Positions 1-16,254 of a DNA stretch of 64,000 nucleotides are shown here, in pieces. The translations under genes and the position numbers were made by a program. Source of the DNA: Oscillospiraceae bacterium (lineage in GTDB: Bacteria; Bacillota; Clostridia; Oscillospirales; Acutalibacteraceae); assembly GCA_910574995.1 (NCBI GenBank), contig CAJTCS010000003.1, positions 62,001 through 126,000 of the forward strand, given 5' to 3'. Positions within the stretch are counted from its first letter, which is position 1, and each line of letters opens with the position of its first letter. The notes under the pieces are model-generated. The model saw only the letters and a list, made by a program, of their open reading frames with translations, was not told where the DNA came from and searched no databases.

Positions 1-965
1 CAGTACGTCAGCGCGTCGCCGTCCGGATCGGTCGCCGCCGCGCAAGAAATATTAATATTGTTTCCGCTGTACGCCGTGGCGGGCGCTGTAATTCCGGAAG
101 GCGCTGTCGGCGCGGAATTGTAGATTATAGTATAATTGCCCGCGCTGTTCGTGGTATCAGATACCAAGATAGAAGATTTCAGATTACAAAGCGGGCGAAC
201 GCCGCTGTTCCCGCCGCAAGCGCTGTAGTAGTTCAACGCGCCGTCCGTGTAGACGCGGCGGACGCTGCAGGCGTTCGAGAAATAAGGCGTTCTAAGCCAC
301 CAATACCAGCCCTTCGTCGTTGCGAAGTTGCTGCTTGTGTATCCGTCCGCATTGCTCACGCATTCCGCCGTGGGATATGCGACGCGGGAAGCGTCGTTGC
401 TGAACAATGCCAGCCGTGAACCTTCGGCGATACTGTTTTCGTTTGCAAGTCCCACTTCGGTGGTGGACGCAAGAAACATTTTCGCGTTAAAGGTTTCGTA
501 ACTGCCGCCGTCCGTCGAAGATTTAACGACGGTCAGCGTTGTGGTTAAAAGCTCCGCAACGAACTTCGGATCAAGCATTGCAAGGAAGCCCGCCCACGCC
601 GTGTACGGATTATATGTAACGTGTGTGCTTTTCGTCGTCGGCGCTTGATCTGCGCTGTGCTTTGCGCTGTACCAATTTCCCGCCGTCGCGTTGCTGTTCA
701 GCCATTGCAAAAGGTTTGAATGAATGTGTCTGTTGTTGCCGTAGCTCTTCCGGTTACTGTCGCTGTTGTTCGGCTCTTTTGCGTCCGAAGCCATGATTTG
801 AATAATCTTTTCAGCGATCAGCGTTACCGAATTCGCGGGGTAGCCGCTGTGGTTCATGTCTGCAACCTTGAAAACGATCTTCGCCCCGAACCGCGATTGA
901 TACGCGGAAAGAACCGGAACTTCGATCTTGTCGCCCACCGACAAGCTGCTTAATGCTTTTGACAT
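1..965 (-). CDS. DGR target protein with C-type-lectin-like (DUF6273-type) variable domain, partial
   Basis: The ATG is at 965-963, preceded by GGAGGAAAAG, and the reading frame stays open through position 1, so the C-terminus lies outside the window. The 321 visible residues begin MSKALSSLSVGDKIEVP. Around residues 219-227 there is a GWYWWLRTP motif, followed by a GVRPL motif near 255-259. This W-W-L-R ... G-V-R-P pattern is typical of DUF6273/formylglycine-enzyme-like C-type lectin folds used as DGR targets. The variable repeat encodes about residues 226-259. After it come roughly 60 residues resembling an Ig/fibronectin-type domain (APTAPSGITAP, DPDGDALTY), so the variable domain is internal. 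In a phage this would be a receptor-binding or virion surface protein; that role is inferred. It lies 20 bp downstream of the reverse transcriptase on the same strand. Confidence 0.85.
   Translation of the reverse strand, partial: MSKALSSLSVGDKIEVPVLSAYQSRFGAKIVFKVADMNHSGYPANSVTLIAEKIIQIMASDAKEPNNSDSNRKSYGNNRHIHSNLLQWLNSNATAGNWYSAKHSADQAPTTKSTHVTYNPYTAWAGFLAMLDPKFVAELLTTTLTVVKSSTDGGSYETFNAKMFLASTTEVGLANENSIAEGSRLALFSNDASRVAYPTAECVSNADGYTSSNFATTKGWYWWLRTPYFSNACSVRRVYTDGALNYYSACGGNSGVRPLCNLKSSILVSDTTNSAGNYTIIYNSAPTAPSGITAPATAYSGNNINISCAAATDPDGDALTY
152..166. other. Short hairpin downstream of VR
   Basis: TGGTATC-A-GATACCA is a perfect 7-bp palindrome with a 1-nt centre, or 5 bp with a 5-nt loop. 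It lies 22 bp beyond the 3' (initiation) end of the VR on the coding strand. Some DGRs use a DNA hairpin just downstream of the VR for target recognition; whether this one serves that role is inference. Confidence 0.4.
189..290 (-). repeat. DGR variable repeat (VR)
   Basis: This 102-bp segment aligns without gaps to the template repeat at 2324-2425 (constant offset 2135). Of 15 differences, all 15 are at positions that are A in the template on the minus (coding) strand; no C, G or T of the template is changed. The changes alter 13 codons, mostly AAC/AAT (Asn) codons becoming Tyr, Ser, Arg or Gly, and Tyr becoming Cys. This is the established mark of DGR mutagenic retrohoming. Homology stops abruptly at both ends. 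Confidence 0.95.
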
Positions 966-985
966 TTCTTTTCCTCCTTCGGTTT

Positions 986-2152
986 TTAGTGATTTTCAAA
1001 ACTGCCGAATACGTCGCAATACTCCGATATATACCCGCAAAAATAGCTTTTGTGGTAGTACGGGCATTCCCTGCACGGTATTTCGCCGCAAGGCAAGATC
1101 GGCGGCGCGTCGTTTTCCTTTTCTTCAATCCCGAAAAGGCTTTTGTAATATTGATCCGTTCGCCGTATCAAGTGATAGCAATTCCCCTTTGAAGCGTGTC
1201 CTCTCCAGCTTTGATAGGATTGTTCGATCGTCTTTTGGTCGATCTTTCCCGCCGCTTTCAGTCCGGCAAATTTCTTCAACTTCCGCTTCATGTTGTTTTT
1301 GCTGCGGCGGCGCACCTTCCGGATCACTTTTCCCGTTTCCGTCAAGTACGTGTGAAAGCCAAGAAAATCAATGCCGTTCTTCAATGGGTAGATATTTGTT
1401 TTCGCGTTCAGCGAAAGCCCGCGCGCTGCGACGAACGCTTCAATTTCCTTCCGGCAATGCCGCAAGTATTCTTTATCCTCATGGATCAAGAAGAAGTCGT
1501 CCATATAGCGCCCGTAATATTTGATACCCAGCTTTTCCTTGATGAAATGATCCAGCCCGTCAAGGTAGAGAAGGGCGAAAAGCTGTGAAGTTTGATTTCC
1601 GATCGGTATTCCGACGTTTCCTTCCGTGCTGTCGATGATAAGATCGACAAGCCACAAAACGTCCGGATCGGTTATCTTCTCGCGGATTAAGGTTTTCAGA
1701 ACGTCATGCCGGATCGAATAGAAGTATTTTGAAATATCGCCCTTCAAAATCCAGCCGTCAACGCCGTTCTTCCTGTAAAACCTCCGCAAGAACTCTTGAA
1801 GCCGCCCCAGCCCGTCGTGCGTACCTTTCCCCACCTGTGAAGCGTAATTGTCGCGTATGAACGATCGCGTCAAGATCGGTTCAAGCACATTGTCGCAAAG
1901 CGCGTGTTGAACCACTTTATCCTTGTAGCTGTTCGACATAACGACGCGCTTCTTCGGTTCGTAAACCTCGAACGTGTTATACGGGGACATGGTGTATTTC
2001 TTCGTGCGTAGCTGATAGCTTAATAGGTTCAGCGCTTCAAGAAGGTTTACTTCAAACTTTGCCGCCGCTCCCTTCCACCTCTTGCCTTGCCGCGCCTTTC
2101 GGTAGGCTCTGTACAGGCTTTCAAAACTGTATATCTTTTCAAACTCTGTCAT
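986..2152 (-). CDS. DGR reverse transcriptase
   Basis: 388-residue reverse transcriptase starting MTEFEKIYSFESLYRAY; the longer open frame upstream merely reads into the TR. Visible RT motifs are GDISKYF (residues 138-144), IPIGNQTSQ (about 182-190) and YMDDF (216-220). The IGNxTSQ form of motif 4 is typical of DGR RTs and differs from the group II intron type. The protein would copy the TR RNA with errors at adenines and write the cDNA into the VR. The last 40 residues contain five cysteines (C-x4-C-x2-C, then two more), suggesting a small metal-binding tail. No maturase or HNH domain is seen. The TR lies 172 bp upstream and the target gene 20 bp downstream on the same strand. Confidence 0.95.
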   Translation of the reverse strand: MTEFEKIYSFESLYRAYRKARQGKRWKGAAAKFEVNLLEALNLLSYQLRTKKYTMSPYNTFEVYEPKKRVVMSNSYKDKVVQHALCDNVLEPILTRSFIRDNYASQVGKGTHDGLGRLQEFLRRFYRKNGVDGWILKGDISKYFYSIRHDVLKTLIREKITDPDVLWLVDLIIDSTEGNVGIPIGNQTSQLFALLYLDGLDHFIKEKLGIKYYGRYMDDFFLIHEDKEYLRHCRKEIEAFVAARGLSLNAKTNIYPLKNGIDFLGFHTYLTETGKVIRKVRRRSKNNMKRKLKKFAGLKAAGKIDQKTIEQSYQSWRGHASKGNCYHLIRRTDQYYKSLFGIEEKENDAPPILPCGEIPCRECPYYHKSYFCGYISEYCDVFGSFENH

Positions 2153-2323
2153 AATAAAAATATCCTCGCTGTTTCGTAACCTTTGCCAGCCGCTTTCGCG
2201 GTATGCTCCGGTATCGGCGATCCTGTATTTGTCCCCGCCGTGGATAGCGGCGACGGGATACACCTTCCTTTGATGATGGTATTCTGCTTTCGCCTTTCGG
2301 CTACTCGATCGCGTTATCCATCG

Positions 2324-2425
2324 AAGCGGGTGAACGCCGTTGTTCCCGTTGTAAGCGTTGTTGTTGTTCAACGTGCCGTCCGTGTTGACGTTGCGGACGT
2401 TGTAGGCGTTCGAGAAATTAGGCGT
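2324..2425 (-). repeat. DGR template repeat (TR)
   Basis: This is the invariant donor repeat for the VR at 189-290. Read on the minus strand it is rich in AAC/AAT codons (it would encode stretches such as NVRNVN and LNNNNAYNGNNG). That arrangement lets adenine mutagenesis sample many residues without creating stops. About 31 of its bases are adenines on that strand, and 15 of these differ in the VR. It sits between the avd-like remnant and the RT gene, the usual place for a TR. Confidence 0.95.
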
Positions 2426-2450
2426 AACAAGATGTACCCCGAAACGGTTT

Positions 2451-2662
2451 TCAAGCCCTCGTTTTGTCCCGCTTCTTCCACGCGGTCGTCATGTACTTCA
2501 CGTCAAGAACAAGTTTGCTCCAATATTCGCAACTGTTCATTGATATAAAGCCCATTTCCTGCGAAAGCTCTATGAAAAATAGAAGCTCCTTGCATTTCCC
2601 AAAGCCACGAAGCCGCGCTTGAAATGCCTTCCCACAATCCGTGAAGCAGATTTGCGCCCGCG
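2451..2662 (-). pseudogene. 3' remnant of avd-like four-helix-bundle gene
   Basis: In the frame ending with TGA at 2453-2451, the last ~55 residues contain CKELLFFIELSQEMGFIS, CEYWSKLVLDVKYM and TAWKKRDKTRA. This helical pattern resembles the C-terminus of the small four-helix-bundle (Avd/bAvd) proteins that accompany DGR RTs, and the position just upstream of the TR fits. No start codon or N-terminal half is present. Upstream the sequence is tape-measure gene in another frame, so the first part of avd seems to have been deleted. The family call is from memory of typical Avd C-termini. Confidence 0.55.
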
Positions 2663-4878
2663 TTGACAAGCTCACCGCCCAGCGACGCGAAGGCTTGCAC
2701 AATGCCGGAAACAATCTGCGGAACTGCCTTCACGATTTCAATAATGATCGTCGGCAAATTCTCGATCAGCGCCACGAATAGCTGAACGCCCGCCATGATA
2801 ATTTGGTCGATGTTCCCGATCAGCGCGTTTACAATTCCGCTGATAATCTGCGGGATCGCCTGTACAATCGTAACGATAATTTCCGGTAAAGCCTGTATCA
2901 GCGCGACAAGAAGATCAATGCCCGCTTGAATGATAAGCGGTATATTCTCCATAAGCGCCGTTACGATCCCGTTTATGATTTGCGGGATTGCTTCAACGAT
3001 CGCCGTTATGATTTCCGGAAGCGCCGCGACAAGGGAAACAAGCAGATCAATTCCGGCTTGAATGATCTGCGGGATTGCGGAAAGCAAGCCGTCGATCAAG
3101 CTGGTTATTAGCTGTGGAAGCGCCGCCACCAGAACAGGGATCGCGTTTATGATACCCTGCGCCAGCCCTGTGATAAGCTGCAACGCCGCGTCGATCAGCA
3201 TAGGGATATTGTCTATCAGCACTTGCACAACGTCCACTATAAGCTGAACAAGCGACGGAATAAGCGTCGGGAACGACTGCGCTATTCCCGTTGCTATGTT
3301 CGCGATCATCTGTATCGCAAATTCAAGGAATTTCGGCAACATTTCGGTTAATTTCTCGATTGCAAGCGTCACCATTCCCATAATCCCGTCCGTGAATTGC
3401 TGTGCCGCCCCTTCTGCGCCCGAAAGCGCACCCGTTAGCCCTTCACCAATCAAAGCGACAAACGGCGTTATTTGTTGTAAAAGCTCCGCCGCAAGCTGCT
3501 TTAATCTTGTTATGATCGGCTCTGCGATTGCGCCCAGCTCCGCCATAGCATTGTTCAAATTCGCCGTTGCTTTCTGCGCGTCGATAATATCGCCGTTTAC
3601 TTCCCTGTATTTATTCGCTGCTTCTGAATATAGCCCGTTCAGCGTTGAAGTAATAAGAGCTTGCCGCTCTTGTTCAGACGTGCAAGCGTCAAGTTTAGCT
3701 TGAAAATCATCTTCCGAAACGCCCGCCCAATTCAGCGCGTCCGCAAGATTTCCCGTAATCGCTCCCGTTTTTGCTGTTTCGTTTGCTGCTTCCGTCAAGC
3801 CTTCAATCGGCAAGCTGTCGCCGAATGTTGCATATACACCCGTACAAATATTAGTCCAGTCTGAAAGCTCTTTTTCGTTTGTCGTCAATTTTGCAAGGTG
3901 TGCCGCCGCTTCGGTCGCTTGTCCATCGTCACCAAGAACCCCGTACAATTCCGTATAAGTATTCTTTGCGTCCTCTGCTGAATGTCCCGCTGTGGTGAAG
4001 CTGGTTTCAAGTTTACCCATGTTTTCGCGGGCTTCCCGCGTTTCCTCTGCAAGTCCTAAAAAAGCAGCGCCCGCCGCCGCGATCGCTGCCCCCATAGCTG
4101 CACAAGCTGTTCCGATTGCCTTTCCCGCTTTTCCAGCCACTTCGCCGAATTTCGCCCAGCTTCCGCTTGAATTTTTGAGCGCGTCAGACGTTTTTTTGAC
4201 TTGCGTTCCGGTGCTTTTCATTTCTGCCTTGCATTCATTTAGGCTTTTTTCAAGCTCCAAGGCTTCGTCCGAATTTTCGCCGTATTCGCTCTTTGCAGCG
4301 TTTAGGGCTTTTTCAAGTGACTGTACCTTCTTTTCCTGCTCCGAATATGTCCTTTGCAGAACAGACAATTTCGCTTTAAGCGCGTCGGCGCTTCCGGCGT
4401 TTTCCTCATATTCTGCGGATACAAGTTTCATTTCCGAAGCCAAAATCCCCAACTGTTTGTCTATGCTTGCGGCTGCGGCTGTGAACTGTTCTGAAGCTGG
4501 CGTTGTCTGATTTAGGCTTTCTGTTATCCCGTTGATCTGTTGTTCTGTTTTCAGCATTTCAGCTTTTGTATTGTTTAGGTTCGTTTGCATTTTCTGAAAT
4601 GCCGTATCGGTGGGATCAATGCCCGCTTCGCGCATTTTGCGAAGGGCGGCTTCTGCCGCTTCCGCTTTCTTTGCCTGTTCTGCAAGCTGCTTTTGCAAGA
4701 CTTCTTGTTTCCGCGTCAGCGCTTCGGAACTGCTGGCGTTGTTTGCGAACTCCGCCGTCGCCAGCTTCATTTCTGAATTGATTTCGCGAAGGGAAGTATT
4801 TATGCTTTTACAAGCTGCGCGATACTCTTTTTCGCCTGTCAAGGCGATTGACGTTTTGATCTGCTCTTCTTTAGCCAT
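2503..4878 (-). CDS. Phage tape measure protein, 3' end replaced by a deletion junction
   Basis: 791 residues. Residues 1-230 are charged and coiled-coil-like (repeated S-L-x-E-I-N-S-E-M-K-L-A patterns). A hydrophobic segment follows near 260-280. From about residue 520 there are tandem ~40-residue repeats of the type AGIDLLVxLIxALPEII...IPQIIxGI, typical of tape measure proteins, which set tail length and are threaded through the tail tube. The start is directly after the chaperone frameshift stop (TAA then ATG). The protein loses family character after GLWEGISSAASWLW. The last ~30 residues come from the avd-like remnant read in the wrong frame, so the normal C-terminus and the genes beyond it are missing. 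Confidence 0.85.
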   Translation of the reverse strand: MAKEEQIKTSIALTGEKEYRAACKSINTSLREINSEMKLATAEFANNASSSEALTRKQEVLQKQLAEQAKKAEAAEAALRKMREAGIDPTDTAFQKMQTNLNNTKAEMLKTEQQINGITESLNQTTPASEQFTAAAASIDKQLGILASEMKLVSAEYEENAGSADALKAKLSVLQRTYSEQEKKVQSLEKALNAAKSEYGENSDEALELEKSLNECKAEMKSTGTQVKKTSDALKNSSGSWAKFGEVAGKAGKAIGTACAAMGAAIAAAGAAFLGLAEETREARENMGKLETSFTTAGHSAEDAKNTYTELYGVLGDDGQATEAAAHLAKLTTNEKELSDWTNICTGVYATFGDSLPIEGLTEAANETAKTGAITGNLADALNWAGVSEDDFQAKLDACTSEQERQALITSTLNGLYSEAANKYREVNGDIIDAQKATANLNNAMAELGAIAEPIITRLKQLAAELLQQITPFVALIGEGLTGALSGAEGAAQQFTDGIMGMVTLAIEKLTEMLPKFLEFAIQMIANIATGIAQSFPTLIPSLVQLIVDVVQVLIDNIPMLIDAALQLITGLAQGIINAIPVLVAALPQLITSLIDGLLSAIPQIIQAGIDLLVSLVAALPEIITAIVEAIPQIINGIVTALMENIPLIIQAGIDLLVALIQALPEIIVTIVQAIPQIISGIVNALIGNIDQIIMAGVQLFVALIENLPTIIIEIVKAVPQIVSGIVQAFASLGGELVNAGANLLHGLWEGISSAASWLWEMQGASIFHRAFAGNGLYINEQLRILEQTCS

Positions 4879-5453
4879 TTACAACCCTCCCAACACGTCG
4901 TCAATATCAACTTCTTTCGGATCGGGCTTGAACCGATCCGGATTGAATTCACGGTGAATTCTGAAAAGCGTTAAAATTTTGTACGGTGTCATGCGCCATA
5001 CTTCGGCTTCGCTCCACCGTAAAAGCGTTACGCCGATATAAAGAAGGCGGGCAAGGTCGATTATTCCTTGCCCGCCGCTGCGTTTTTTCCCTCTGTGCTG
5101 TCCTCTTCGTCGTCCTCTTCATCGTCGCGGGCGGGCGGCTCTTCCGTGCCGTTGTTGCCCATCGAAAACGCCTTGAAGATCGCGTCCTTTACCTCTGCAA
5201 AATTTCCGGTATGGATCAGCCTTCCCACCTGTTTTTCGGAAAGCTCCGGTTCGCCCTCTTCCGCGCCCTCGTTCAAAAGCACGGTCAGAAGCCAGCGAAG
5301 ATTTTTAATGCTGTCCCGTCCGGAAAGCACTTCGTCAAGGCGATCAAAGCCGCCGAATTTGTCTTGCATTTCGTCGATCGCGTTCAGACTGAAAAGAAGG
5401 TGTCTTTCCTTGTCCAGCATGATCGGAAAACGCCCGTCCTTAATTGCGCTCAT
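4879..5453 (-). CDS. Tail assembly chaperone, -1 frameshift product (gpGT-like)
   Basis: The short product (5453-5061, 130 residues, MSAIKDGRFPIML...) ends in an acidic stretch. Before its stop lies A AAA AAC at 5088-5082 in the correct register (G GGA AAA AAC). Slipping back one base there gives an uninterrupted frame to TAA at 4881-4879, for a 191-residue product ending DIDDVLGGL. The second frame reads LARLLYIGVTLLRWSEAEVW..., like the T domain of tail chaperones. The pair would coat the tape measure protein during tail assembly. The stop abuts the tape measure ATG with no gap. The start is weak: a hairpin precedes it and no clear ribosome-binding site is seen. Confidence 0.8.
5061..5453 (-). 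CDS. Tail assembly chaperone, non-frameshifted product (gpG-like)
   Basis: 130-residue zero-frame protein. The folded part (residues 1-100) contains FSLNAIDEMQDKFGG and LRWLLTVLLNEGAE, a pattern common to tail chaperone G proteins of Firmicutes phages. The tail (about residues 103-130) is nearly all Asp, Glu and Ala. It is made when ribosomes do not slip at 5088-5082. Confidence 0.75.
   Translation of the reverse strand: MSAIKDGRFPIMLDKERHLLFSLNAIDEMQDKFGGFDRLDEVLSGRDSIKNLRWLLTVLLNEGAEEGEPELSEKQVGRLIHTGNFAEVKDAIFKAFSMGNNGTEEPPARDDEEDDEEDSTEGKNAAAGKE
5082..5088 (-). promoter_or_regulatory. Programmed -1 ribosomal frameshift heptamer
   Basis: A AAA AAC fits X XXY YYZ and is in phase with the 130-residue reading frame (codons GGA AAA AAC). 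The -1 frame after it is open to 4879. Tail chaperone genes of most long-tailed phages use such a slip. Confidence 0.75.
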
Positions 5454-5460
5454 AAAGTAA

Positions 5461-5491
5461 TAAGGCGGGAAGCTCTGTTCCGCTTCCCGCC
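5461..5491 (-). terminator. Hairpin between major tail protein and chaperone genes
   Basis: GGCGGGAAGC (5491-5482) pairs perfectly with GCTTCCCGCC (5473-5464) around an 8-nt loop, followed by TTATTACTTT on the minus strand. It lies directly before the chaperone ATG. It may be a partial terminator that makes major tail protein transcripts more abundant than downstream ones. Confidence 0.6.
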
Positions 5492-5516
5492 TTTGCCCCC
5501 TTTCTGTATTCCGTTG

Positions 5517-5923
5517 TTATCCTGCGTTGTTGTTCGGTTCGCGAACCGCCGTAAACCATGCCTTCGCAACGTCGTTCGTCGGTTCGGAAACGTGTTCCGC
5601 CTTCCACAAGCCATCGTCGCGCTTGACGAACTGCCCGACGATTTCCGGCGTGGAAAATTCGATCCCGTCGCCCTTCGTGTTGTAGGTTTCGTCCGGAACG
5701 GAAAACTTGACTTTGTAAAGCCAAATGTATTTATACGTTCCGCCCGCCTTCCTTGCGCGGAAGCCGATTGCGAAGTACGGCGCTTCATCGTCGCCGGAAG
5801 CGTAAACCACGTTGTCGCTGTCCTGCGTCTGCCCCAGCAGCGCGGCAAGGTCAGCCGGAAGCAGATCGTTCACGCCCAGCTTTATCTCTCCCTTCACGAA
5901 ATGCCTGTCGGCTGGGAACTGCC
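5517..5923 (-). pseudogene. 5'-truncated phi13-type major tail protein
   Basis: The frame matches the C-terminal two thirds of phi13-family major tail proteins: KGEIKLGVNDLLPADLAALLG, then APYFAIGFRARKAGG, VKFSVPDETYNTKGDGIEF and a TPEIVGQFVKRDDGLW segment. About 60 N-terminal residues expected of this family are absent. The only possible start is a GTG at 5897 lying inside the capsid frame. It overlaps the end of the capsid gene fragment in another frame, which points to a deletion joining the two genes. Confidence 0.75.
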
Positions 5924-6637
5924 CGTTCCATTGATAAGTAAATCTTCGACTTTGCGGGCGATCGCTTCCGCCAGCATATCGACGATCCAGCTTTCAAACG
6001 CCGCAATGCTCATTGTCATAACGCTGTCGGAAATCTGAACCAGCTTGATGATCTCATAGCCGGAAAGCTGAACGGTGGTCAGCGTGTCGGCGGCTGCAGT
6101 AATAGCCGCGTTTTCTGTGTGGATCGCGGCGGCGTTGTTCGTACCCTCGACGGCGAATTTCACCGCGCCTTTGACGTGAAGAAGGGTAACTTCGTTCAGC
6201 ATGGGCGCAAGCGTCTTTACCTTGCTGATAATCTCGTTCGCGGTCTGCGTGGGGATAACCTCCGCACCCGTGCCGCTGGCGTTCGCATACGCGCGCGCTT
6301 CCATGAAGGCGCGGTTCTCCGCTTCGGTCAGCGGAAGGCGGCGAAGCTGCTTCAACCACGCGGAACGGTATTCGGGCGTACCGAAGGGATCGTCCGGCTT
6401 CTCTTCCTGCTGCCCTCTCTGCTCGAAGGAACGGGAAACAGCGCCTGCGCCCTTCGAGATACTGTCAAGAATGCCGTTGCGCTTCTCGGCGGCGGCAATC
6501 AGTCCGGCGCGCTCTTCGGTAAGCTGCGTGGTTTCCTGCTCCAGCGCGTCGATCTCGGCGGCGGTCATATCCGTGCCGCGTGTTTCGATTTCCTGCTTGA
6601 TAGCCGCAAGGCGGGCTTCGATTTCTTTAATTCTCAT
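5894..6637 (-). pseudogene. Truncated HK97-family major capsid protein
   Basis: 247 residues beginning MRIKEIEARLAAIKQEIE. The N-terminal ~70 residues are the coiled-coil scaffold (delta) region. Then EKPDDPFGTPEYRSAWLKQL and IPTQTANEIISKVKTLAPMLNEV mark the start of the HK97 capsid fold. It stops after the motif LLINGTGSSQPTGI, which lies near the middle of normal ~390-400-residue capsid proteins, so roughly the last 150 residues are missing. The ATG has a good AGGTT-type site (GGAGGTTTAACACA). The frame ends at the junction with major tail protein sequence. A functional capsid is unlikely. Confidence 0.85.
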
Positions 6638-6641
6638 TGTG

Positions 6642-7247
6642 TTAAACCTCCATCATAAGTTTGATTTTTAGAATTTGTTTCCGGCGCTCCAGCCGCTCCT
6701 GCTGCTCCCTCTCGATCACTCCGTCGAAATAAGAGCGCGCCGAAATTTCGGTATCGCCGTTCGCCGGAATGGATACCGCCGAAACGTCGTAAACCTTCGC
6801 AACCTTTAGGATCGTCCGCGTCCGCGTGTCCCTGTCGTAGCTATCTTCCGTTACACGGAACGCCCACGACATTTTCGTAATAAGTCCGTTTTTGATTTCC
6901 TCGAACATATCTTGCGCGGCGCGGGATTTCGACAAGTCCGCGAACGTGAAAAGCCCGCTTTCGGTCACTTCAACGCCCAGCGTCTTGTTGGAAAGGCGGG
7001 CAAGCACCTTCCCCGAATGATCGTACTGCATAATCACGTCAGACATATCCGCGCCCACAAGCGCGTTTCTGTCGATCCGCTCGAAGTATTTTTGCCCGTC
7101 GTACTCATAGAGTAAATACGGCTTGTCGAACGTCGTGGCGTAGCCTTCCACGTAAAAGTCCGTGTCAATCCTCTTTTCCTTCGTCCCTTGCGGGATCAGC
7201 AGTGGCTGGATCATTGTTCTGTATTCCCGATCCTTCATCATCGGCAT
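6642..7247 (-). CDS. HK97-family prohead protease
   Basis: 201 residues from the ATG at 7247, chosen because AAGGAGG lies 9 nt upstream. The family pattern is visible: FYVEGYATTFDKPY near the N-terminus, MQYDHSGKVLARL (catalytic His region), then LITKMSWAFRV (Ser region) and VYDVSAVSIPAN. This serine protease removes the scaffold domain of the capsid protein during head maturation. It overlaps the 3' end of the portal gene by about 80 bp and is followed after 4 bp by the capsid gene. Confidence 0.9.
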   Translation of the reverse strand: MPMMKDREYRTMIQPLLIPQGTKEKRIDTDFYVEGYATTFDKPYLLYEYDGQKYFERIDRNALVGADMSDVIMQYDHSGKVLARLSNKTLGVEVTESGLFTFADLSKSRAAQDMFEEIKNGLITKMSWAFRVTEDSYDRDTRTRTILKVAKVYDVSAVSIPANGDTEISARSYFDGVIEREQQERLERRKQILKIKLMMEV

Positions 7248-8400
7248 TCGGTACAACCTCCTTTCCTAATTCTGAAACTTCCGTGTACTCTTTGCGTATA
7301 TAATACTTGTCGCCGCCTTCAACGTGCGCCATGTTCCAAATATCCATAACGCCGTTACGGTTCAACAAGCCACGGTCAAAAAGCTGTGTGCTGATATTTA
7401 GCTTCGTCGCGTTTGAAGCGTATTGAAGCCTGTTTGCGGTAAATGTGATCGCATTCCCGAAGGACAATTCCCGATCGCTGAACGTCATATTCGATAATAC
7501 AAGGGAAAGCTGGATCGCGAAAGGCTCGATTTTGCCTTCATAGTAGGCGTTCCATTCGTCCTCTGTATATCGGTTTTGCAGAATGCCCGCATTCGTCCCG
7601 AAGTAGTTAAAAACATTTTCGTTGATCTGCGCCATCTGCGCCGCGTTCACGGTGAACGGCTTGCTTTCGATCGGCTTCACGTCCGCGAACTTCGCGTCAT
7701 AAATCACCATGCCGGATTGATTGTCCGCCGAAAGGTTATCCGCCGTAAAGCGCTTTCGCTCTTTCGTTATATCCTCCGGCTTTAACATATTTGCGACTTT
7801 CGCAAGGAAGCGAACCGAAGCCGAATTCTTCACGCCGTTTATAATTCCTTGATTTTGCGTGTGGATTAGCTGCATTGTCGGACGAAGCGCGGCGTTGCTT
7901 TCGCCGAAGAAGTCGTCCTTGTACTGAAAGTTTGTCAGTACGCCGACGCGCTCGAATTCGATTGCCGCCTTCTGCCCGCTGGCGAAGGTATAGCGCAAAA
8001 ACGGCGCGCCGCCAAACTCGACAACTTCGCACCGCTGGGGAAGAAGGGGATAATACCCGATCAATTCCCCGAAATCATCTTCAATCGGCACAATGAAACA
8101 AGTGTTGTTCACCGAAAGGATCGTCGCGATCCTGTATATGAATTTCGATGTATCCATAAACGGATTTGGCTTGAATTGCAAAGTCCGTTCAAGGTGCTTT
8201 TTCGCTGCGCCGCTGATTTCCGGTTTCAGCTTCGACGCAAAGGAAGCGAAGGAATGTATCGCCGCCCGCGTAAGCTCCATTTCGTAAAGGCTTTCCGGCG
8301 CGTTCGTAAAAACGGGCGTGTACCCGTTTAGCATTTTGAAGTATCCTTCCGCTTTCAAGTCCGCTTTCGGTCTTTTGAAGATCGTTTCAAATACTCCCAT
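7165..8400 (-). CDS. Phage portal protein
   Basis: 411 residues from the ATG at 8400 (GGGGTGA six bases upstream); a GTG at 8409 overlapping the terminase stop is possible. It resembles HK97-type portals: MGVFETIFKRP at the start, IATILSVNNTCFIVP, then MLKPEDITKERKRF and NYFGTNAGILQNRYTEDEWNAYYEGKIEPFAIQLS, the region forming the wing/stem. It forms the dodecameric ring through which DNA enters the head. The gene appears intact. Confidence 0.9.
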   Translation of the reverse strand: MGVFETIFKRPKADLKAEGYFKMLNGYTPVFTNAPESLYEMELTRAAIHSFASFASKLKPEISGAAKKHLERTLQFKPNPFMDTSKFIYRIATILSVNNTCFIVPIEDDFGELIGYYPLLPQRCEVVEFGGAPFLRYTFASGQKAAIEFERVGVLTNFQYKDDFFGESNAALRPTMQLIHTQNQGIINGVKNSASVRFLAKVANMLKPEDITKERKRFTADNLSADNQSGMVIYDAKFADVKPIESKPFTVNAAQMAQINENVFNYFGTNAGILQNRYTEDEWNAYYEGKIEPFAIQLSLVLSNMTFSDRELSFGNAITFTANRLQYASNATKLNISTQLFDRGLLNRNGVMDIWNMAHVEGGDKYYIRKEYTEVSELGKEVVPNADDEGSGIQNNDPATADPARDEGKED

Positions 8401-8405
8401 TTTTA

Positions 8406-10058
8406 TCACCCCGCATTTTTAAGCATTTCGCCTATTTCGTTATAATATTTCTGCCGCACGGTCAGCGCGTCGATCACGGAAACGAAGCCGTCAATCCGCG
8501 CCCGCTGTTCGATCTTGACCGGACGGAATTTCCGCGTTTCCATGTTGTGCTTCAAGGCGACGTTCAAGAAATGCGCCTTCAACAAATTATTGTCGGCGAT
8601 CTTGAAGTTTCCGTCTTTGATAATTCCTTCAAACTCGCGGATCACGGGCGCAAGGTTTTCACCTTGAAACACGTCGTCCGTTTGGAAGCCCGCCGCTTTC
8701 AAGTCGTCGATCAGATATTGCGCGCTATAACGGTCGTATCCGACCTTCAAGATGTAAATTCCGTACTTGTCCCGAAGCTCTGCGAACCACTCGAAAACGT
8801 CTTTGTAATCGACGTGGTTTTCGCCGGATAGCTTCAAGATACCTTGCTTCGCGAATATGTCATACGGTACACCGTCGATCGCTTGCGCGGTTTCAAGCCT
8901 GTTTGCTGGCATAAAGAATTTTGCGAAAGCGTACAAAACGCCGTCCCGCTCGATCACGATTGAAGCCGCTGTCAAGTCCGTTGTTTGCGAAAGGTCTATT
9001 CCGCCCACCGCGTAGCTGTCTTTGAATTCCTCCAGCTTCGCGTGAATTCCTGCGCCGTCCACGACGCTGTAATCAAGCCAAGCGACGGAAGAATTCTGCT
9101 TGATATTGCAATACTTCGTCAAGAATTCTATGCGCTTCGATATGCTCATTTCGGCGACGGCGATTTCCTCTTTGAAGAAGTCCGGCGATACCGAAACGCC
9201 CATATTCGGATTTGCTTTTTTAAGCTCTTCAAGGTCGTTCCATTTCTCCACGTCGTCGATCATGTAGAGAAGGGGAAGAAGGCGGCGTTCCTTGCTGCCG
9301 CCCTTCAAAAACGCCGTTGAACGCTTCATCAATTCGTCGAAGATACCGTCGTTTTCGTAGCCCGCCGTGCTGATAGAAAGGATCATCGGCTGGCGGCGCG
9401 CGCCCAGCGCGGATTTCATAACTTCATACTGTTTCAATCCGCCGTCGCCGCGCCACGACGCGACTTCATCGTTTACGACTAAATGCGGATTGAAGCCGTC
9501 TGATTTCTTCGCATTGAACGCCAGCGGCTTTATTGCCGTGTTGCTCTCTTCGACGTAAATATCGGAACGGCGCTTTTTCGATAGCTCGGAAAGCTCCGGT
9601 TCTTTTTTTATCATCTGATAGAAGTTATCGTAAACGATGTTTGCTTGTTCCAGCTTCGGCGCAAGGCAATATATTTTCGCGCCGTATTCGCCGTCAAGAT
9701 ACGCCATATACGCGATAACGGCGGACGCAAAAAGCGTTTTGCCGTTCTTTCGCCCGATCACAATAAAGACTTCACGAAATACGCGCGTTCCGTCCGGCTC
9801 GACGATCCCGAACATAACCGAAACGGCGGCTTTCTGCCATAGCTCCAATTTCAAAAGGTCTGTGCGCCCCTCGCAATGGTGGCAAAAGTTTTCGATAAAC
9901 CGGATCGCTTTATTTGCCTTCTTTGCGTCGAAGGTGAAAAGCCCGTCTTGAAGCCCCTGCACGATGTATTCATACAAAAGCCGAACCCACTTGCCGACAA
10001 CGATTTTTCCCGAAGAAATCCCGTCGAAATATTCGTAAATGTAATTTGAAAACGGCAT
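8406..10058 (-). CDS. Terminase large subunit
   Basis: 550 residues from MPFSNYIYEYFDGISSGK, directly after the small-subunit stop. The Walker A-like motif GRKNGKT is at residues 102-108. The ATPase region continues with APKLEQANIVYDNFYQM and a Walker B-like LVVNDEVASW. The C-terminal nuclease half has VGGIDLSQTTDLTAASIV and YDRYSAQYLIDDLKAAG. It powers DNA packaging and cuts the concatemer. It overlaps the portal frame by a few bases. No disruption is seen. Confidence 0.93.
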   Translation of the reverse strand: MPFSNYIYEYFDGISSGKIVVGKWVRLLYEYIVQGLQDGLFTFDAKKANKAIRFIENFCHHCEGRTDLLKLELWQKAAVSVMFGIVEPDGTRVFREVFIVIGRKNGKTLFASAVIAYMAYLDGEYGAKIYCLAPKLEQANIVYDNFYQMIKKEPELSELSKKRRSDIYVEESNTAIKPLAFNAKKSDGFNPHLVVNDEVASWRGDGGLKQYEVMKSALGARRQPMILSISTAGYENDGIFDELMKRSTAFLKGGSKERRLLPLLYMIDDVEKWNDLEELKKANPNMGVSVSPDFFKEEIAVAEMSISKRIEFLTKYCNIKQNSSVAWLDYSVVDGAGIHAKLEEFKDSYAVGGIDLSQTTDLTAASIVIERDGVLYAFAKFFMPANRLETAQAIDGVPYDIFAKQGILKLSGENHVDYKDVFEWFAELRDKYGIYILKVGYDRYSAQYLIDDLKAAGFQTDDVFQGENLAPVIREFEGIIKDGNFKIADNNLLKAHFLNVALKHNMETRKFRPVKIEQRARIDGFVSVIDALTVRQKYYNEIGEMLKNAG

Positions 10059-10060
10059 TT

Positions 10061-10414
10061 TTATTCGTCCCTTAATGCCTGTAATCGGCTTTCTTTCTTC
10101 TTTTCGGGCGGTACAAGATCGCAAAGCTGCTTGATAATGGCGGCGTGATTTTTCGTCATTGCGATATGCGTTTTCACCGCGTCGCTTTGCTTTGTCCCGC
10201 TCTGATTTGCCCCGTTTTGATATTCGACGGTGTATCCCTCTTCGTTTATGATTTCCTGCAATTCTTCAAGGCTCACCGCCATAAACGCGGCGTTCCGGAT
10301 AAGGCTTTCGACGGTCTGCAACTTGTTTTTATCCAAGTCTTTGAAAACCCGCTTTAATCGCGTGATCTCCCGCTTGATTTTCTGTTCTTTCGTCAAGTCC
10401 TTTTTTGTCGCCAT
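10061..10414 (-). CDS. Terminase small subunit (P27-like)
   Basis: 117 residues from MATKKDLTKEQKIKREITRL; GGGGGCG lies 7 bases before this ATG. The protein is highly charged and helical, and fits P27-family small terminases by size and position (KTHIAMTKNHAAIIKQLCDLVPPEKKKE is characteristic of the C-terminus). It would recognise the packaging site and load the large subunit, whose gene begins 3 bases beyond the stop. Confidence 0.8.
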   Translation of the reverse strand: MATKKDLTKEQKIKREITRLKRVFKDLDKNKLQTVESLIRNAAFMAVSLEELQEIINEEGYTVEYQNGANQSGTKQSDAVKTHIAMTKNHAAIIKQLCDLVPPEKKKESRLQALRDE

Positions 10415-10490
10415 AAATATCGCCCCCTTTCCGGTTCTACCACACCCCCCTAACACGTACACCCGTTATGCGCGCGCCTGCGGAGTAAAT

Positions 10491-10838
10491 TTAATCTCCC
10501 GCCCTCGGTGTTGAACCCTCCCTAAACTTTCGGCGAATAGGGGGGGATACAAGGTTTCCTTCTTCGTCGAAATCGTAACGCCGCCGATCGTCGTTCCGGT
10601 GGTGTTCCTTGTTGTGGCAATCTTGACAAAGCGCTTCGAGATTATCCCACGAAAGCGTAATCGCCGGATCGTTTATATTTTTCTTCGTCAAGTAGGTTTT
10701 GTGATGTGCGATCTTTGCGACAACCGGATCGCTTGGCGTTGAACAGCGTTCGCACAAATAGCCCTTCGACTTCAAGAACCCGTCGCGGCAAGCCCGCCAC
10801 GCTTCGCTGTTGTAAAACCTTTCTGCCCACGGCTTCAT
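10491..10838 (-). CDS. Phage HNH endonuclease
   Basis: 115 residues starting MKPWAERFYNSEAWRACRD. Zinc ligands and catalytic motif are visible: CERC, AHHKTYLTKKNINDP (the HH pair), then LEALCQDCHNKEH. HNH nucleases just upstream of terS/terL are usual in HK97-like phages, where they work with the terminase in packaging. A G-rich ribosome-binding site precedes the ATG. Confidence 0.9.
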   Translation of the reverse strand: MKPWAERFYNSEAWRACRDGFLKSKGYLCERCSTPSDPVVAKIAHHKTYLTKKNINDPAITLSWDNLEALCQDCHNKEHHRNDDRRRYDFDEEGNLVSPPIRRKFREGSTPRAGD

Positions 10839-10866
10839 GTGCTGCGCCCCCTTTCCGCGCAAAAGA

Positions 10867-10903
10867 AAAAGCCCTCTGCGGATCGTCCCCGTAGAAGGCT
10901 TTA
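10867..10903 (-). terminator. Rho-independent terminator or attenuator before the HNH gene
   Basis: On the minus strand AAAGCC...CGG pairs with CCG...GGCTTT (one internal mismatch), then CTTTTTCTTTT. It lies only about 35 bp downstream of the start expected from the promoter at 10943-10971, so it would either end the regulator transcript or attenuate the packaging genes. Confidence 0.6.
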
Positions 10904-10942
10904 AGTCTGCGCTATTTCGTTTCGCAAAAATTCATCGTAAAT

Positions 10943-10971
10943 ATTATACCTCTTGAAGAGGGTATGCACAA
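10943..10971 (-). promoter_or_regulatory. Probable phage late promoter with dyad in the spacer
   Basis: On the minus strand TTGTGC (10971-10966), a 17-bp spacer and TATAAT (10948-10943). The spacer contains the perfect palindrome CCTCTT-C-AAGAGG (10961-10949), a possible regulator site. It points toward the HNH-terS-terL genes and lies between them and the putative late regulator. Confidence 0.55.
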
Positions 10972-10995
10972 GGGCGGCTTTTGGTCGCCTTTTGG

Positions 10996-11478
10996 TCATT
11001 TGTCAATATCCCGCTTCCTGTATGTTCCGGCGCTCACCGCCGCCGCGATCCCGAAGATACAGACGGACATATCGTTGACAATCTTATTCCGCCAGCGGCG
11101 CGCCGTCTTTATCTCTTTGAGAATGCCCGCTTCTTCAAGCTCTGCGACAACCTCTTCCCACGTTGCCGTCTTGCCGCCCTCGCGGGGATCGCCGTTTATA
11201 TCCTCCCCGAAATAGTACAGCCGGATCACGACGAATTCTTTTTGCCCCTCGAACAGCGAAACAGCCCGCTTCAATTTCTCGAAGCCGAACTTCGTTTCCC
11301 GATATTGCCGCCGCTTTTCTTCCTGCATTTCCTCGACAATATCTTCTTCGGTTTTCTGCTCATAGTATCCCGCGCTTTTGCTGCCCGCCGAAAAGGTCTT
11401 GCGCCCCGCGTGATACTCGACTTCGCAATATGCTTCTTCGTCTGCGACAAGCGCCGCCAGCTTCTTGTAGTTATACAA
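10996..11478 (-). CDS. Putative phage late transcription regulator (ArpU/sigma-region-4-like)
   Basis: 160 residues (MYNYKKLAALVADEEAYCEVEYH). The C-terminal half contains KTATWEEVVAELEEAGILKEIKTARRWRNKIV, a likely helix-turn-helix similar to the small activators that precede HNH and terminase genes in Firmicutes phages. Such proteins switch on late genes; the dyad promoter at 10943-10971 is a candidate target. The specific family is not certain. It is the rightmost identifiable prophage gene; no lysogeny or replication genes lie beyond it. Confidence 0.55.
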   Translation of the reverse strand: MYNYKKLAALVADEEAYCEVEYHAGRKTFSAGSKSAGYYEQKTEEDIVEEMQEEKRRQYRETKFGFEKLKRAVSLFEGQKEFVVIRLYYFGEDINGDPREGGKTATWEEVVAELEEAGILKEIKTARRWRNKIVNDMSVCIFGIAAAVSAGTYRKRDIDK

Positions 11479-11521
11479 ATGTTACTCTCTTCAAAAAGAG
11501 GGAGAGCGATAAAAATGCCTG

Positions 11522-11550
11522 TTGAAAATTTTTCCGAAACATGGTATCAT
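11522..11550 (+). promoter_or_regulatory. Promoter of the serine recombinase gene
   Basis: TTGAAA (11522-11527), 17-bp spacer, TATCAT (11545-11550), 37 bp before the recombinase ATG, which has AAGGAGA in front of it. Confidence 0.65.
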
Positions 11551-11587
11551 GATCGTATCGTGTCCCTGTTCATTAAGGAGATCACCA

Positions 11588-13240
11588 ATGAACAGGAAGA
11601 ATAAACTTACCACCTCTGTCACCGCCCTGTACTGCCGCCTCTCCATTGAGGACGGACGGGAAAACGAGAGCATGAGCATCAGCAATCAAAAGGCTCTGCT
11701 TCGTGACTTTGCTGAGAAAAACGGCCTGCTAGACTACGAATTTTATGTTGATGACGGTTACACAGGCCGTAATTTCAACCGTCCTTCGTTCCAGAGGATG
11801 ATTGCCGACATTGAGGCCGGGAAGGTCAAATGTGTAATCACGAAAGACCTCTCACGGCTGGGCCGGAACTACATTGAAGCTGGCAGCTATATCGAAATCT
11901 TCTTCCCGCGTCACAACGTCCGCTATATCGCTGTTACTGACGGCGTGGACAGTCTGAACCGGCAGGAGATGGACATTACCCCCTTCAAAAATATCCTGAA
12001 CGATATGTATAGCCGGGATATTTCCAAGAAGGTGCTGGCGGGCTGGATGGCCCGCTCCCGGCAGGGGAAGTTTTTGGGTGGGCCTACTCCTTACGGCCTT
12101 ATGCGTGACCCCAACGACTGCGGCCACCTGATTATCGACCCGGAGACAGCCCCCACCGTCAAGCTGGTTTTCGACTTGGCAGCAAACGGATACGGCATGA
12201 TGCGGATTGCAAAATATCTGCTGGAACGCAAGATTCCCATTACCCGCGTCAAAGGCCCGATAGAATCCGAAGTGCGCTATTATTCTTGGGGCAATTCCGT
12301 AATCAGTAAAATGCTCCGCAATCCGGTCTACAAAGGCGATCATGTGGTCTGCAAATGCCACCAGAAGGCTATTCGCTCTAACACCTACAATTTTGTTCCC
12401 CGTGACGAGTGGGAGATCATTGAGAACTGCCATGAGGCGATTGTCAGCCGGGAGCAGTGGGATAGGGTGCAAAAGCTGATTGACCGCCGTCCTACCGTTT
12501 CGGGAGAAAACAGGTGTCCATTTTATAATCTGTTTCACGGCCTTATCTACTGTGCTACTTGCGGAAAATCCATGCAGGTGCGCTATGAGAAGGTGGGCCG
12601 GACGGATATTGACCGCAGCACCAAGAAGAAGCGGGAGCCGATTGACAGGGCATATTATATCTGCCAGACCTATAACCGGCTGGGAAAGAACGCTTGCACC
12701 AGCCATAAGATTGAGGCCCGCGACCTTTACAATCTCGTGCTGTCGGATATTATAGAGCATGGCAAAATGGCCTTGCAGGATTCCGAGGCATTCTATGGGC
12801 GATTGACCTATCGGCTGGAACAGCGGTACACCATGGACGAAGGGGCCTTGAAGAAAGAGTTGGATGCCTTGGCGAAGCGCAATCAGGAAATTGACGAGAT
12901 GTTTATGAGCCTGTACGCTGATAAGACCAAGGGTATTCTGACGGAGCAGCGGTTCTTCCGCATGACTGAAACGCTGGAGCAGGAACAGGCGGACAACAAG
13001 GTACGGATGCAGGCGAGCACGGACGAGTTACGAACCGCCAACGAAACGGAAGATGATGTGCGCCGGTTCATCGGAGAAATCCGGGAATATGCGTCCATCA
13101 CCGAATTGGACGAGGCAATCTTGAACCGGCTGATTGATAAAATCATCATTAGCGCAGTCGAAGTCATTGACAGCGAAAAGGTGCAGAAAGTCCGTATTGT
13201 TTATAACTTTGTGGGCGAAATTGCCACAATAGACGAATAG
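11588..13240 (+). CDS. Large serine recombinase (TndX/Tn4451-type integrase)
   Basis: 550 residues. The N-terminal resolvase domain has YCRLSIEDG with the likely nucleophile Ser19, then SISNQK, DGYTGRNFNRPSFQRM and DLSRLGRNYIE. The recombinase domain follows (GGPTPYGL). A zinc-ribbon region has YCATCGKS and CTSHKIE, then a coiled coil and a DUF4368-like end (TELDEAILNRLIDKI, VRIVYNFVGEI). It inserts and excises mobile elements by site-specific recombination. The gene is complete. Its composition is less G+C-rich than the core genes. It is read away from the prophage, so it more likely belongs to a separate integrative element than to the phage. Confidence 0.93.
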   Translation: MNRKNKLTTSVTALYCRLSIEDGRENESMSISNQKALLRDFAEKNGLLDYEFYVDDGYTGRNFNRPSFQRMIADIEAGKVKCVITKDLSRLGRNYIEAGSYIEIFFPRHNVRYIAVTDGVDSLNRQEMDITPFKNILNDMYSRDISKKVLAGWMARSRQGKFLGGPTPYGLMRDPNDCGHLIIDPETAPTVKLVFDLAANGYGMMRIAKYLLERKIPITRVKGPIESEVRYYSWGNSVISKMLRNPVYKGDHVVCKCHQKAIRSNTYNFVPRDEWEIIENCHEAIVSREQWDRVQKLIDRRPTVSGENRCPFYNLFHGLIYCATCGKSMQVRYEKVGRTDIDRSTKKKREPIDRAYYICQTYNRLGKNACTSHKIEARDLYNLVLSDIIEHGKMALQDSEAFYGRLTYRLEQRYTMDEGALKKELDALAKRNQEIDEMFMSLYADKTKGILTEQRFFRMTETLEQEQADNKVRMQASTDELRTANETEDDVRRFIGEIREYASITELDEAILNRLIDKIIISAVEVIDSEKVQKVRIVYNFVGEIATIDE

Positions 13241-13247
13241 TGTTTTG

Positions 13248-13282
13248 CAGTGACCCCTTTCTTTTATAGAGAGGGGTCACTG
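13248..13282. terminator. Inverted repeat after the recombinase gene
   Basis: CAGTGACCCCT (13248-13258) and AGGGGTCACTG (13272-13282) are perfect 11-bp arms around a 13-nt loop, 7 bp after the recombinase stop. No U-run follows, so it may be a weak terminator or a recombination-related structure. Confidence 0.5.
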
Positions 13283-13348
13283 TGAAGTTGCATGCGGACT
13301 GCGTAGAAATCAGAAATAACCAAATTTTTAATGAAATTGGGAGTAATA

Positions 13349-14620
13349 ATGCAAATGCAAGATTTTTTTAAAGATGCAAGATATAAAAGAGCCTATTCCA
13401 CCATATCCTTTGCTTTCTTTGTTTTTTTGGTTGAGATTTCAATATATGAAATGTTGAGAAAGTTTGAGATCAAACAGTATTGGCTGCTATTACCACTTGG
13501 CATGTATATACTAGGGGCCACATTTGCAAAGCATATTAAAATTGTTCGAATTGTTATGGGGGCCCTGGAAATCAGCAGCATCTTATCTTTTGTACTTTTG
13601 TGTATCGGAATACGAAACGAATACATAGCTGAATTGTTAAAAAACCATTTCGAAATAATCGCAATTATTGCTATTATAGCTCTTTTTATTAATCTATATA
13701 TTAGTCGAAATTCTACGACCAAAAATGTTGACACGAAAATAGAACCTAACTCGATACAGTTATTCAATCTATTCTATTTGAATACTTCCAAGGCGCATGA
13801 AATAGCCATGCTGATAGACAATAAAATTATGAAAACTATTGAGCGCGAGCAGGTTTCGGAGGAGCTTTTAAAATACAATGCATCATCCACTTTGGGATTA
13901 AAGGATGTAGCATCTGCTGATATAGATTACGCTATGGAGGATAATTCTAAAAAGAGAGTCTATGAAAACTTTGACGTTAAGACAACAAAATCGATTATGC
14001 TTCGGACAATATATGAAACTGCTAAAAAAAAGGACAGTGGGACAGATTCTTTAAAAATCGGAGATTTGGTACTATTTAAAAGTATTGAATTACAGCAACG
14101 TAACATCGAAGATACTGTAATGATTTTGAATATATTACAAGATAGCAAAATAAAAAATCAAGCGAATGGTGCAATAGAAGTCAATGTGAATAAAATGATG
14201 GGCAAAATGTTGGATGATTTCACAATCGATTATACATTTGAATATGTGTGCAAGTCTACGGAAGAAGATTCCAGCACTTTTATCATCCAAATACCTTATA
14301 AAGCCACAGATAATTTTGAAAATGGCTATCAACACAATGATTTACAGTTAGGTAGATTGAGTTTAATTGGAATTTATCGTGGTAAAATTGATTTTTCAAA
14401 ACGAGAAAGCATTTCTTCTAAGTTCTTAGAAATGATTTCAGATTCCTACAATCAAGTGAATAAACGCAAAGCAAAGCCAACTGAAATGAAACTCAGCTCA
14501 AGTGGTACTACTTCCCATGATATTCAATTTGAGTTTCACCATGAGAAATTGACAGATGAAATGCACTTAATTGACGTTATTGCAATTATTCAAGAGTTGA
14601 ACTTTGATAGGGATGAATGA
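13349..14620 (+). CDS. DUF6414-like membrane-anchored protein of unknown function
   Basis: 423 residues from the ATG at 13349 (GGGAG 5 nt upstream). Three or four hydrophobic segments occupy residues ~15-115 (FAFFVFLVEISIY, LLLPLGMYILGATF, ILSFVLLCIGI, IIAIIAIIALFINLYI). A soluble C-terminal part of about 300 residues follows, beginning NSIQLFNLFYLNTSKAHEIAMLIDNKI, which resembles DUF6414 proteins. No catalytic motif is seen. The gene is very AT-rich compared with the flanks. It sits immediately before an AAA+ ATPase gene and is probably co-transcribed with it, so the two may form one system. Defence or stress sensing is possible but unproven. Confidence 0.6.
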   Translation: MQMQDFFKDARYKRAYSTISFAFFVFLVEISIYEMLRKFEIKQYWLLLPLGMYILGATFAKHIKIVRIVMGALEISSILSFVLLCIGIRNEYIAELLKNHFEIIAIIAIIALFINLYISRNSTTKNVDTKIEPNSIQLFNLFYLNTSKAHEIAMLIDNKIMKTIEREQVSEELLKYNASSTLGLKDVASADIDYAMEDNSKKRVYENFDVKTTKSIMLRTIYETAKKKDSGTDSLKIGDLVLFKSIELQQRNIEDTVMILNILQDSKIKNQANGAIEVNVNKMMGKMLDDFTIDYTFEYVCKSTEEDSSTFIIQIPYKATDNFENGYQHNDLQLGRLSLIGIYRGKIDFSKRESISSKFLEMISDSYNQVNKRKAKPTEMKLSSSGTTSHDIQFEFHHEKLTDEMHLIDVIAIIQELNFDRDE

Positions 14621-14621
14621 C

Positions 14622-16064: not shown

Positions 16065-16193
16065 AAAGTTGAAATTCATAAAATTCAAAACGAATTAAAT
16101 GAGTTGTGTGAGTATGATAATTTGCGCGACATAAAAAGGAATGTAGAAGATATTGTGTTCAACAGTTTCTTGGAATGTTATAAACAGGAATAA
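16065..16193 (+). pseudogene. C-terminal lid of the AAA+ ATPase beyond the in-frame TGA
   Basis: In the frame of the preceding gene, 42 codons read KVEIHKIQNELNELCEYDNL then RDIKRNVEDIVFNSFLECYK and end in TAA. RDIKRNVEDIVF resembles the sensor-2/small-lid helix of Clp ATPases, so this is the detached end of the upstream protein. There is no start codon or ribosome-binding site. Confidence 0.65.
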
Positions 16194-16212
16194 CAATTTA
16201 ATCACATTTTGC

Positions 16213-16254
16213 TATATCCCCCTGCCTCGATAACCGAGATAGGGGGATATTTTT
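16213..16254 (+). terminator. Rho-independent terminator after the ATPase gene
   Basis: ATATCCCCCT pairs with AGGGGGATAT around an inner CTCG/CGAG helix, followed by TTTTG. Confidence 0.8.

What the first reader, a model, noticed from the sequence alone, without database searches (positions are those of the whole stretch)
189..2425. DGR with an adenine-only TR/VR difference pattern
TR (2324-2425) and VR (189-290) align over 102 bp without gaps. All 15 substitutions are at template A on the coding strand (15 of about 31 A's changed, 0 of about 70 other bases). Together with an IGNQTSQ/YMDD reverse transcriptase between them, this is direct evidence that the element has diversified its target at least once.
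Basis: partly seen in the sequence, partly recalled or inferred. Interest (0 to 1): 0.9.

Follow-up and report, generated by a model that had tools for sequence, protein, structure and literature searches.

The report
Phage protein mutator missing its helper
A damaged virus sleeping in a bacterial genome carries a known kind of gene-mutating cassette that has rewritten part of one of its own surface-type proteins, but a deletion appears to have removed the helper protein that such cassettes are thought to need.

Summary
In detail: TR 2425..2324(-) and VR 290..189(-) align over 102 bp without gaps and 15 of 15 mismatches fall on the 31 TR adenines (p 9e-10). It is a diversity-generating retroelement (DGR) in a prophage. 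The RT groups with the BPP-1 RT, apart from four other RT proteins of the genome. The target is a 579-aa 'tentaclin' (DUF6273 plus Ig-like domains), as published for phage nd12. The sharpest proof of past diversification: contig L005 matches the window over 7,094 aligned columns except for 20 VR changes, all on template adenines, and one TR change. Two corrections. One of the 15 mismatches is a private TR change, so 14 are DGR-like. And a ~4.4-kb deletion ending 169 bp before the TR leaves 47 of about 134 codons of avd, a gene found upstream of the RT in 82 of 88 related loci; no other clear Avd of that type was found in the genome. The copy is therefore probably frozen. A spacer RNA with strong covariation lies between TR and RT. 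New member of a known kind.

The parts
1..965 (-). target gene (tentaclin), N-terminal part; the whole gene has 579 codons and runs on left of the window (L004:1226-2965 -)
   Evidence: DUF6273 4.3e-33; AlphaFold2 mean pLDDT 88.2
189..290 (-). variable repeat (VR), at the C-terminal end of the DUF6273 domain
986..2152 (-). DGR reverse transcriptase, 388 aa, open; 100% identical to that of L005
2166..2322 (-). structured spacer RNA between TR and RT (helix 2322-2318 with 2279-2275, stem between 2220 and 2166, and inner helices; positions counted by me from alignment A1)
   Evidence: 95.7% of 670 cells paired, 16 of 26 pairs with two-sided changes, 26 sequences
2324..2425 (-). template repeat (TR); private change at 2331
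2451..2594 (-). remnant of avd: last 47 codons of about 134, not in frame with the tape-measure ORF
2594..2597 (.). junction of a ~4.39-kb deletion (tape-measure 3' part to avd)
   Evidence: against L006, L067, L093; sequences; no shared word over 7 bases at the breakpoints
2503..4878 (-). tape-measure gene, cut short by the deletion
5891..5900 (.). junction of a second, ~2.0-kb deletion relative to nd12 (end of capsid gene to start of major tail gene)
   Evidence: against L093 only

Best explanation
A phage DGR of the nd12/tentaclin type. TR RNA with its folded spacer is copied by the RT (in intact relatives with Avd) into cDNA with random bases opposite adenines, and the cDNA replaces the VR, which codes for a hairpin of the C-lectin-like domain of the tentaclin. 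This mechanism is inferred from BPP-1. Shown here: the TR/VR pattern, the RT family, VR divergence between near-identical copies, avd upstream of the RT in relatives, the covarying spacer fold. Inferred: the cassette worked in this lineage before the deletion; after loss of most of avd and of head and tail genes the prophage is defective and its VR frozen, and the TR is free to drift.
For: TR/VR. L005 against window: 20 VR, 1 TR, 0 other differences over 7,094 columns, 20 of 20 at TR adenines. Ten groups of loci share one TR but hold different VRs. RT: phrog_1423 1.2e-135; best PDB sequence 8ub7_A 2.3e-45, next a group II RT 2.6e-18; tree. Avd upstream in 82 of 88 loci; family matches of that protein; only a remnant in the own genome. 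Deletions; lost stretches not found elsewhere in the genome. Avd needed in BPP-1: passages of PMC12875486. Spacer. Target; PMC10743442.
Against: The deletions rest on one assembly; neither junction was found in viral contigs (0 matches each; records very near the window's genome may be left out there). The need for Avd is shown in BPP-1, not in this clade. A weak Avd-like ORF of a second DGR (C9, L106:6949-7365, E 0.004 to my profile, no Pfam match) might act in trans, though BLASTP with the L005 Avd gives only chance-level hits. phrog_3206 also gave a weak hit on C6 (E 0.07). The inverted repeat after VR that BPP-1 needs is in the window but not conserved among relatives. bAvd scores 30 bits against a cut-off of 40.
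Confidence: 0.8

Rival explanations
1. The DGR in the window is intact and active; the deletion is an assembly or binning artefact.
For: L005 shows that a full avd exists beside an otherwise identical cassette. The junctions were not seen in viral contigs.
Against: The contig is 344 kb and continuous. In the relatives the breakpoint neighbourhoods share no word longer than 7 bases within 60 bases on each side, so there is no long repeat to mislead an assembler; the window's own lost sequence cannot be checked. The parts of the lost sequence that relatives supply (L005:1-3578, L093:8201-10220) match nowhere in the genome (no positive control). Two losses in one prophage fit decay.
Confidence: 0.13
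2. The VR differences come from ordinary mutation or selection, with no DGR.
For: None found.
Against: 15 of 15 at A; 20 of 21 differences to L005 lie in 102 of 7,094 columns, 20 of 20 at template A; 916 of 1,894 A but 16 of 4,507 other bases changed over 64 pairs (the finder penalises non-A changes, so this contrast is inflated).
Confidence: 0.01
3. The RT belongs to a group II intron or a defence RT.
For: TIGR04416 matches at 122.8 bits, below its cut-off of 300, and DRT models match weakly.
Against: The tree puts it with BPP-1 bRT and the C9 DGR RT, apart from four other RT proteins of the genome (97/97; midpoint root, few outgroups, long branches flagged); IGNQTSQ motif; adjacent TR/VR and avd.
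Confidence: 0.01

Closest known systems
DGR of phage nd12 (OR777946.1), tentaclin paper PMC10743442
   Same: RT 88.7% identical over 345 residues; order avd-TR-RT-tentaclin; target 579 aa in both (for nd12); VR in the first half of the gene
   Different: nd12 has a full avd and, by the paper, a second target; in the window avd is a remnant, no second VR was found, and the prophage has two deletions relative to nd12
Near-identical copy, contig IMGVR_UViG_3300005461_000156 (L005)
   Same: RT 100% identical; 0 differences outside VR and TR in 7,094 aligned columns
   Different: Full 134-aa Avd; VR differs at 20 bases, TR at one
Bordetella phage BPP-1 DGR (NC_005357)
   Same: avd-TR-RT order; RT 33% identical over 334 aa
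   Different: Target lies upstream of avd with its VR at the 3' end; here the target follows the RT with the VR in its first half; BLASTP finds no match between BPP-1 Avd and the L005 Avd
N-terminal domain of Thomasclavelia ramosa IgA peptidase (9qa6)
   Different: Part of a bacterial peptidase; dispensable for IgA cleavage by that paper, so the likeness says nothing about what the tentaclin binds

Membership tests
Diversity-generating retroelement | TR/VR pair differing at template adenines | tested here: met
Diversity-generating retroelement | RT of the DGR clade | tested here: met
   the tree has few outgroups and flagged long branches
Diversity-generating retroelement | Target with a C-type lectin-like fold that carries the VR (usual, not universal; recalled) | tested here: met
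Diversity-generating retroelement | Adenine mutagenesis and retrohoming in the cell | not testable with these tools
   needs cells or reads
Complete nd12- or BPP-1-type DGR cassette | Full avd upstream of TR | tested here: not met
   47 of about 134 codons remain. So it is filed as a DGR with RT, TR, VR and target, not as a complete cassette of this type
Complete nd12- or BPP-1-type DGR cassette | Structured spacer RNA 3' of TR | tested here: met
   described for BPP-1 in PMC12875486
Complete nd12- or BPP-1-type DGR cassette | Hairpin or cruciform just after VR | tested here: inconclusive
   6-bp stem in the window; a stem of 6 bp or more after VR in 34 of 68 sequences, after TR in 12 of 68, in 16% of random stretches; no covariation seen by eye
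Tentaclins (PMC10743442) | N-terminal C-lectin domain with VR, then Ig-like domains | tested here: met
   residues 283-478 match FnIII tandems; exposure of the VR hairpin not measured
Group II intron RT | TIGR04416 above its cut-off | tested here: not met
   122.8 bits against 300

The most novel reading that the evidence does not exclude
A DGR split from its Avd: TR RNA, spacer, RT and target remain whole, and the cassette fires only when an nd12-like phage infecting or living in the same cell supplies a matching Avd, so that a dead prophage still diversifies a surface-type protein that an incoming phage could pick up by recombination.
Probability: 0.05. Interest if true: 0.65.

Novelty: new member of a known kind. 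Interest (0 to 1): 0.35.

Why it matters
The kind is published. What it adds is (1) an unusually clean natural pair, window against L005, in which 20 of 21 differences are in the VR; (2) an apparent natural loss of avd in an otherwise whole cassette, where drift of the TR and stasis of the VR could be watched; (3) covariation support for a folded spacer RNA in a DGR clade whose RT is 33% identical to that of BPP-1. The Arg codon near the TR 3' end, free of A in 63 of 63 other TRs, gained an A only in the copy that has lost avd; this is a single case and only suggestive.

Tried and rejected
A second VR in the genome: none. Cruciform after the VR as a conserved part: not supported. Rfam: no match at the gathering score in window 1-14000. 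The same deletions elsewhere: none in viral contigs. Relatives: 7 of 60 genomes, own genome included, matched window 986-2640, all of one genus; not followed. Spacer alignment: 49 of the 88 loci plus the window went in, 31 were left after dropping near-copies, and I then dropped L031, L033, L078, L079 and L066 as badly aligned, leaving 26; the loci with RTs of about 50% identity were not used. Of the RNAalifold pairs (29) I left out 7 and added 4 by eye before counting. Of 68 loci with enough flank the finder reported a pair in 66; for L066 that is a 50-bp repeat more than 4 kb from the RT, not a DGR pair, so 65 of 68; L079 has a weak VR-like BLASTN match and L091 is partial. Foldseek and VIA lists for the whole target are filled by its Ig part; in the VIA list only 9qa6 covers residues 2-284.

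Papers: PMC10743442 abstract, passages and section 2.6; PMC11792537, PMC12875486, PMC8144416, PMC3240598, PMC12237041 and PMC12402451 passages only; all others as search listings. That PDB entry 8ub7 is the BPP-1 RT is recalled; the call says only 'Reverse transcriptase'.

Full report
OBSERVATION. On the minus strand TR 2425..2324 and VR 290..189 align over 102 bp without gaps. All 15 mismatches are at TR adenines (31 A of 102; hypergeometric p 8.6e-10). The repeat finder lists the same pair as family D1, its longest. In the whole genome (3,448,047 bases, 54 contigs, unnamed) the VR matches only itself and the TR.

ANATOMY. In transcription order on the minus strand: tape-measure gene cut short (4878..2503), avd remnant (2594..2451), TR (2425..2324), spacer (2323..2153), RT (2152..986), target (965 to beyond the window start). 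The target has 579 codons, DUF6273 at 45-264, and after it Ig/FnIII-like domains. PHROGs matches it to 'Hoc-like head decoration' (621 bits). Neighbouring genes are phage: terminase, portal, capsid and a large serine recombinase, major tail and tail protein, holin and endolysin.

RT. PHROGs phrog_1423, reverse transcriptase, 1.2e-135. Of 7 PDB sequences matched, 8ub7_A is best (2.3e-45), then a group II RT (2.6e-18). In a 29-row tree the RT sits with its DGR relatives, BPP-1 bRT and the RT of a second DGR of the same genome, apart from four other RT proteins of the genome (C10, C5, C8, C6), at 97/97; the root is the midpoint, C5 is a fragment, and BPP-1, C9 and L081 are long branches about which the tool warns.

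RELATED COPIES. RT searches gave 62 viral and 26 genome loci; records very near the window's genome may be left out of them. A finder for A-biased repeats was run on these 88 loci plus the window. 68 of 89 gave a suitable pair and 21 did not, 18 of them apparently for want of flank and the others L066, L079 and L081 (the reason for each was judged from locus ends, not tested). Four of the 68 were identical in TR and VR to another locus and were dropped, leaving 64: 916 of 1,894 TR adenines and 16 of 4,507 other bases differ in the VR. The finder penalises non-A changes, so the contrast is inflated. After that drop ten groups of two to five loci share one TR and differ in VR; the four dropped loci share both.

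THE DECISIVE PAIR. L005 (IMG/VR, 12.3-kb contig) against the window and its left flank: 7,094 aligned columns, 21 differences, of which 20 in the VR, 1 in the TR and 0 elsewhere. All 20 VR differences are at template adenines. Of the 30 shared template adenines 14 are changed in the window and 15 in L005, 6 in both and 3 of these to the same base. So the VRs diverged after the two copies parted, by at least one event in one of them. The more distant L006 and L067 have 20 and 18 VR differences, 3 and 8 TR differences, and 246 and 251 substitutions elsewhere in their aligned parts; the L006 pair includes 2 mismatches not at A.

TR CHANGE. At 2331 the window TR has A where 63 of 63 other distinct TRs have G in a CGC or CGT codon. 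The window VR has G. So the fifteenth mismatch arose in the TR. It is the only difference to L005 outside the VR.

LOSS OF AVD. Against L006, L067 and nd12 the window jumps about 4.39 kb near 2594-2597: L006 1174 to 5562, L067 378 to 4766, nd12 13174 to 17564. In L006 and nd12 this stretch holds the end of the tape-measure gene, further ORFs and an ORF of 134-154 aa; the 134-aa form in L005 and nd12 matches 'Avd protein of DGR' (1.1e-29 and 9.5e-29) and bAvd (8e-7 and 2.7e-6, under the curated cut-off). The window keeps the last 47 codons, in another frame than the tape-measure ORF. Relative to nd12 alone, a second jump of about 2.0 kb (8200 to 10221) lies between the capsid and major tail genes; the capsid ORF left matches only the first 127 of 280 Pfam positions. 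The parts of the lost stretches that relatives supply were not found elsewhere in the genome (L005:1-3578, L093:8201-10220; the tool warns that an empty answer without a positive control shows nothing). An Avd profile made here hits upstream of the RT in 82 of 88 loci; the other six (L037, L045, L061, L064, L065, L091) have 0 to 684 bases before the RT match. Of the 82, L018 is split by a stop and L084 is cut by its contig end. In the own genome the L005 Avd finds only the remnant and phrog_3206 finds the remnant (3.9e-11) and a weak hit on C6 (E 0.07). In reconstituted BPP-1, inactivating Avd lowers repair to about 1e-9 (PMC12875486, passages). I infer that the copy here is inactive in cis.

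SPACER RNA. 26 sequences, RNAalifold, and counts for a 26-pair structure edited from it by me: 95.7% of 670 cells paired, against 82.8% in shuffles and 34-47% in slid versions; 16 pairs and 93 cells with changes on both sides against 10.4 and 29.0; covariation score 0.403 against 0.181. One measure, further pair types, did not exceed the shuffles (30 against 30.2; 325 of 500). The structure was derived from this alignment, which favours it. PMC12875486 says that the BPP-1 spacer folds and recruits bRT-Avd. I saw no description of this clade's spacer in the listings, a narrow search. The window spacer is identical to that of L005.

KNOWN OR NEW. [quoted passage not shown] DUF6273 targets in Faecalibacterium prophages are in PMC11792537 (passages). 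The window is a new member, set apart by its broken state.

Noticed in passing
L108:4874-7756(-) and L109:5387-8266(+), own genome contigs C8 and C6: Two copies of a ~960-aa protein joining an ExoIII/APE-type endonuclease domain to a group II-like RT with maturase domain (Exo_endo_phos, RVT_N, RVT_1, GIIM, weak DUF7662). Endonuclease-then-RT order as in LINE elements (recalled).
   Followed up: partly
L106 (own genome contig C9), TR 6784-6907, VR 7446-7569, minus strand: A second DGR in the same genome: 18 A and 2 other mismatches over 124 bp, DUF6273 target of 410 aa, and a weak Avd-like ORF 6949-7365 (E 0.004 to my profile, no Pfam match).
   Followed up: partly
L066 (IMGVR_UViG_2889778758_000005), 5198-6161: A related prophage in which the RT match stops after residue 84; avd and the TR-spacer region remain, and the two next ORFs tested are not DUF6273 targets (SPOR and PG_binding_1). 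Possibly a second DGR broken by deletion.
   Followed up: partly
L018, about 730 to 299 bases before the RT: avd in two pieces on either side of a stop codon.
   Followed up: no
L081, 4668-4745, 5297-5348 and 5334-5385: VR-like copies upstream of avd in a Tyzzerella MAG, a target-first layout.
   Followed up: no
window 2331: The only difference to L005 outside the VR falls inside the 102-bp TR, in a codon without A in 63 of 63 other TRs.
   Followed up: partly
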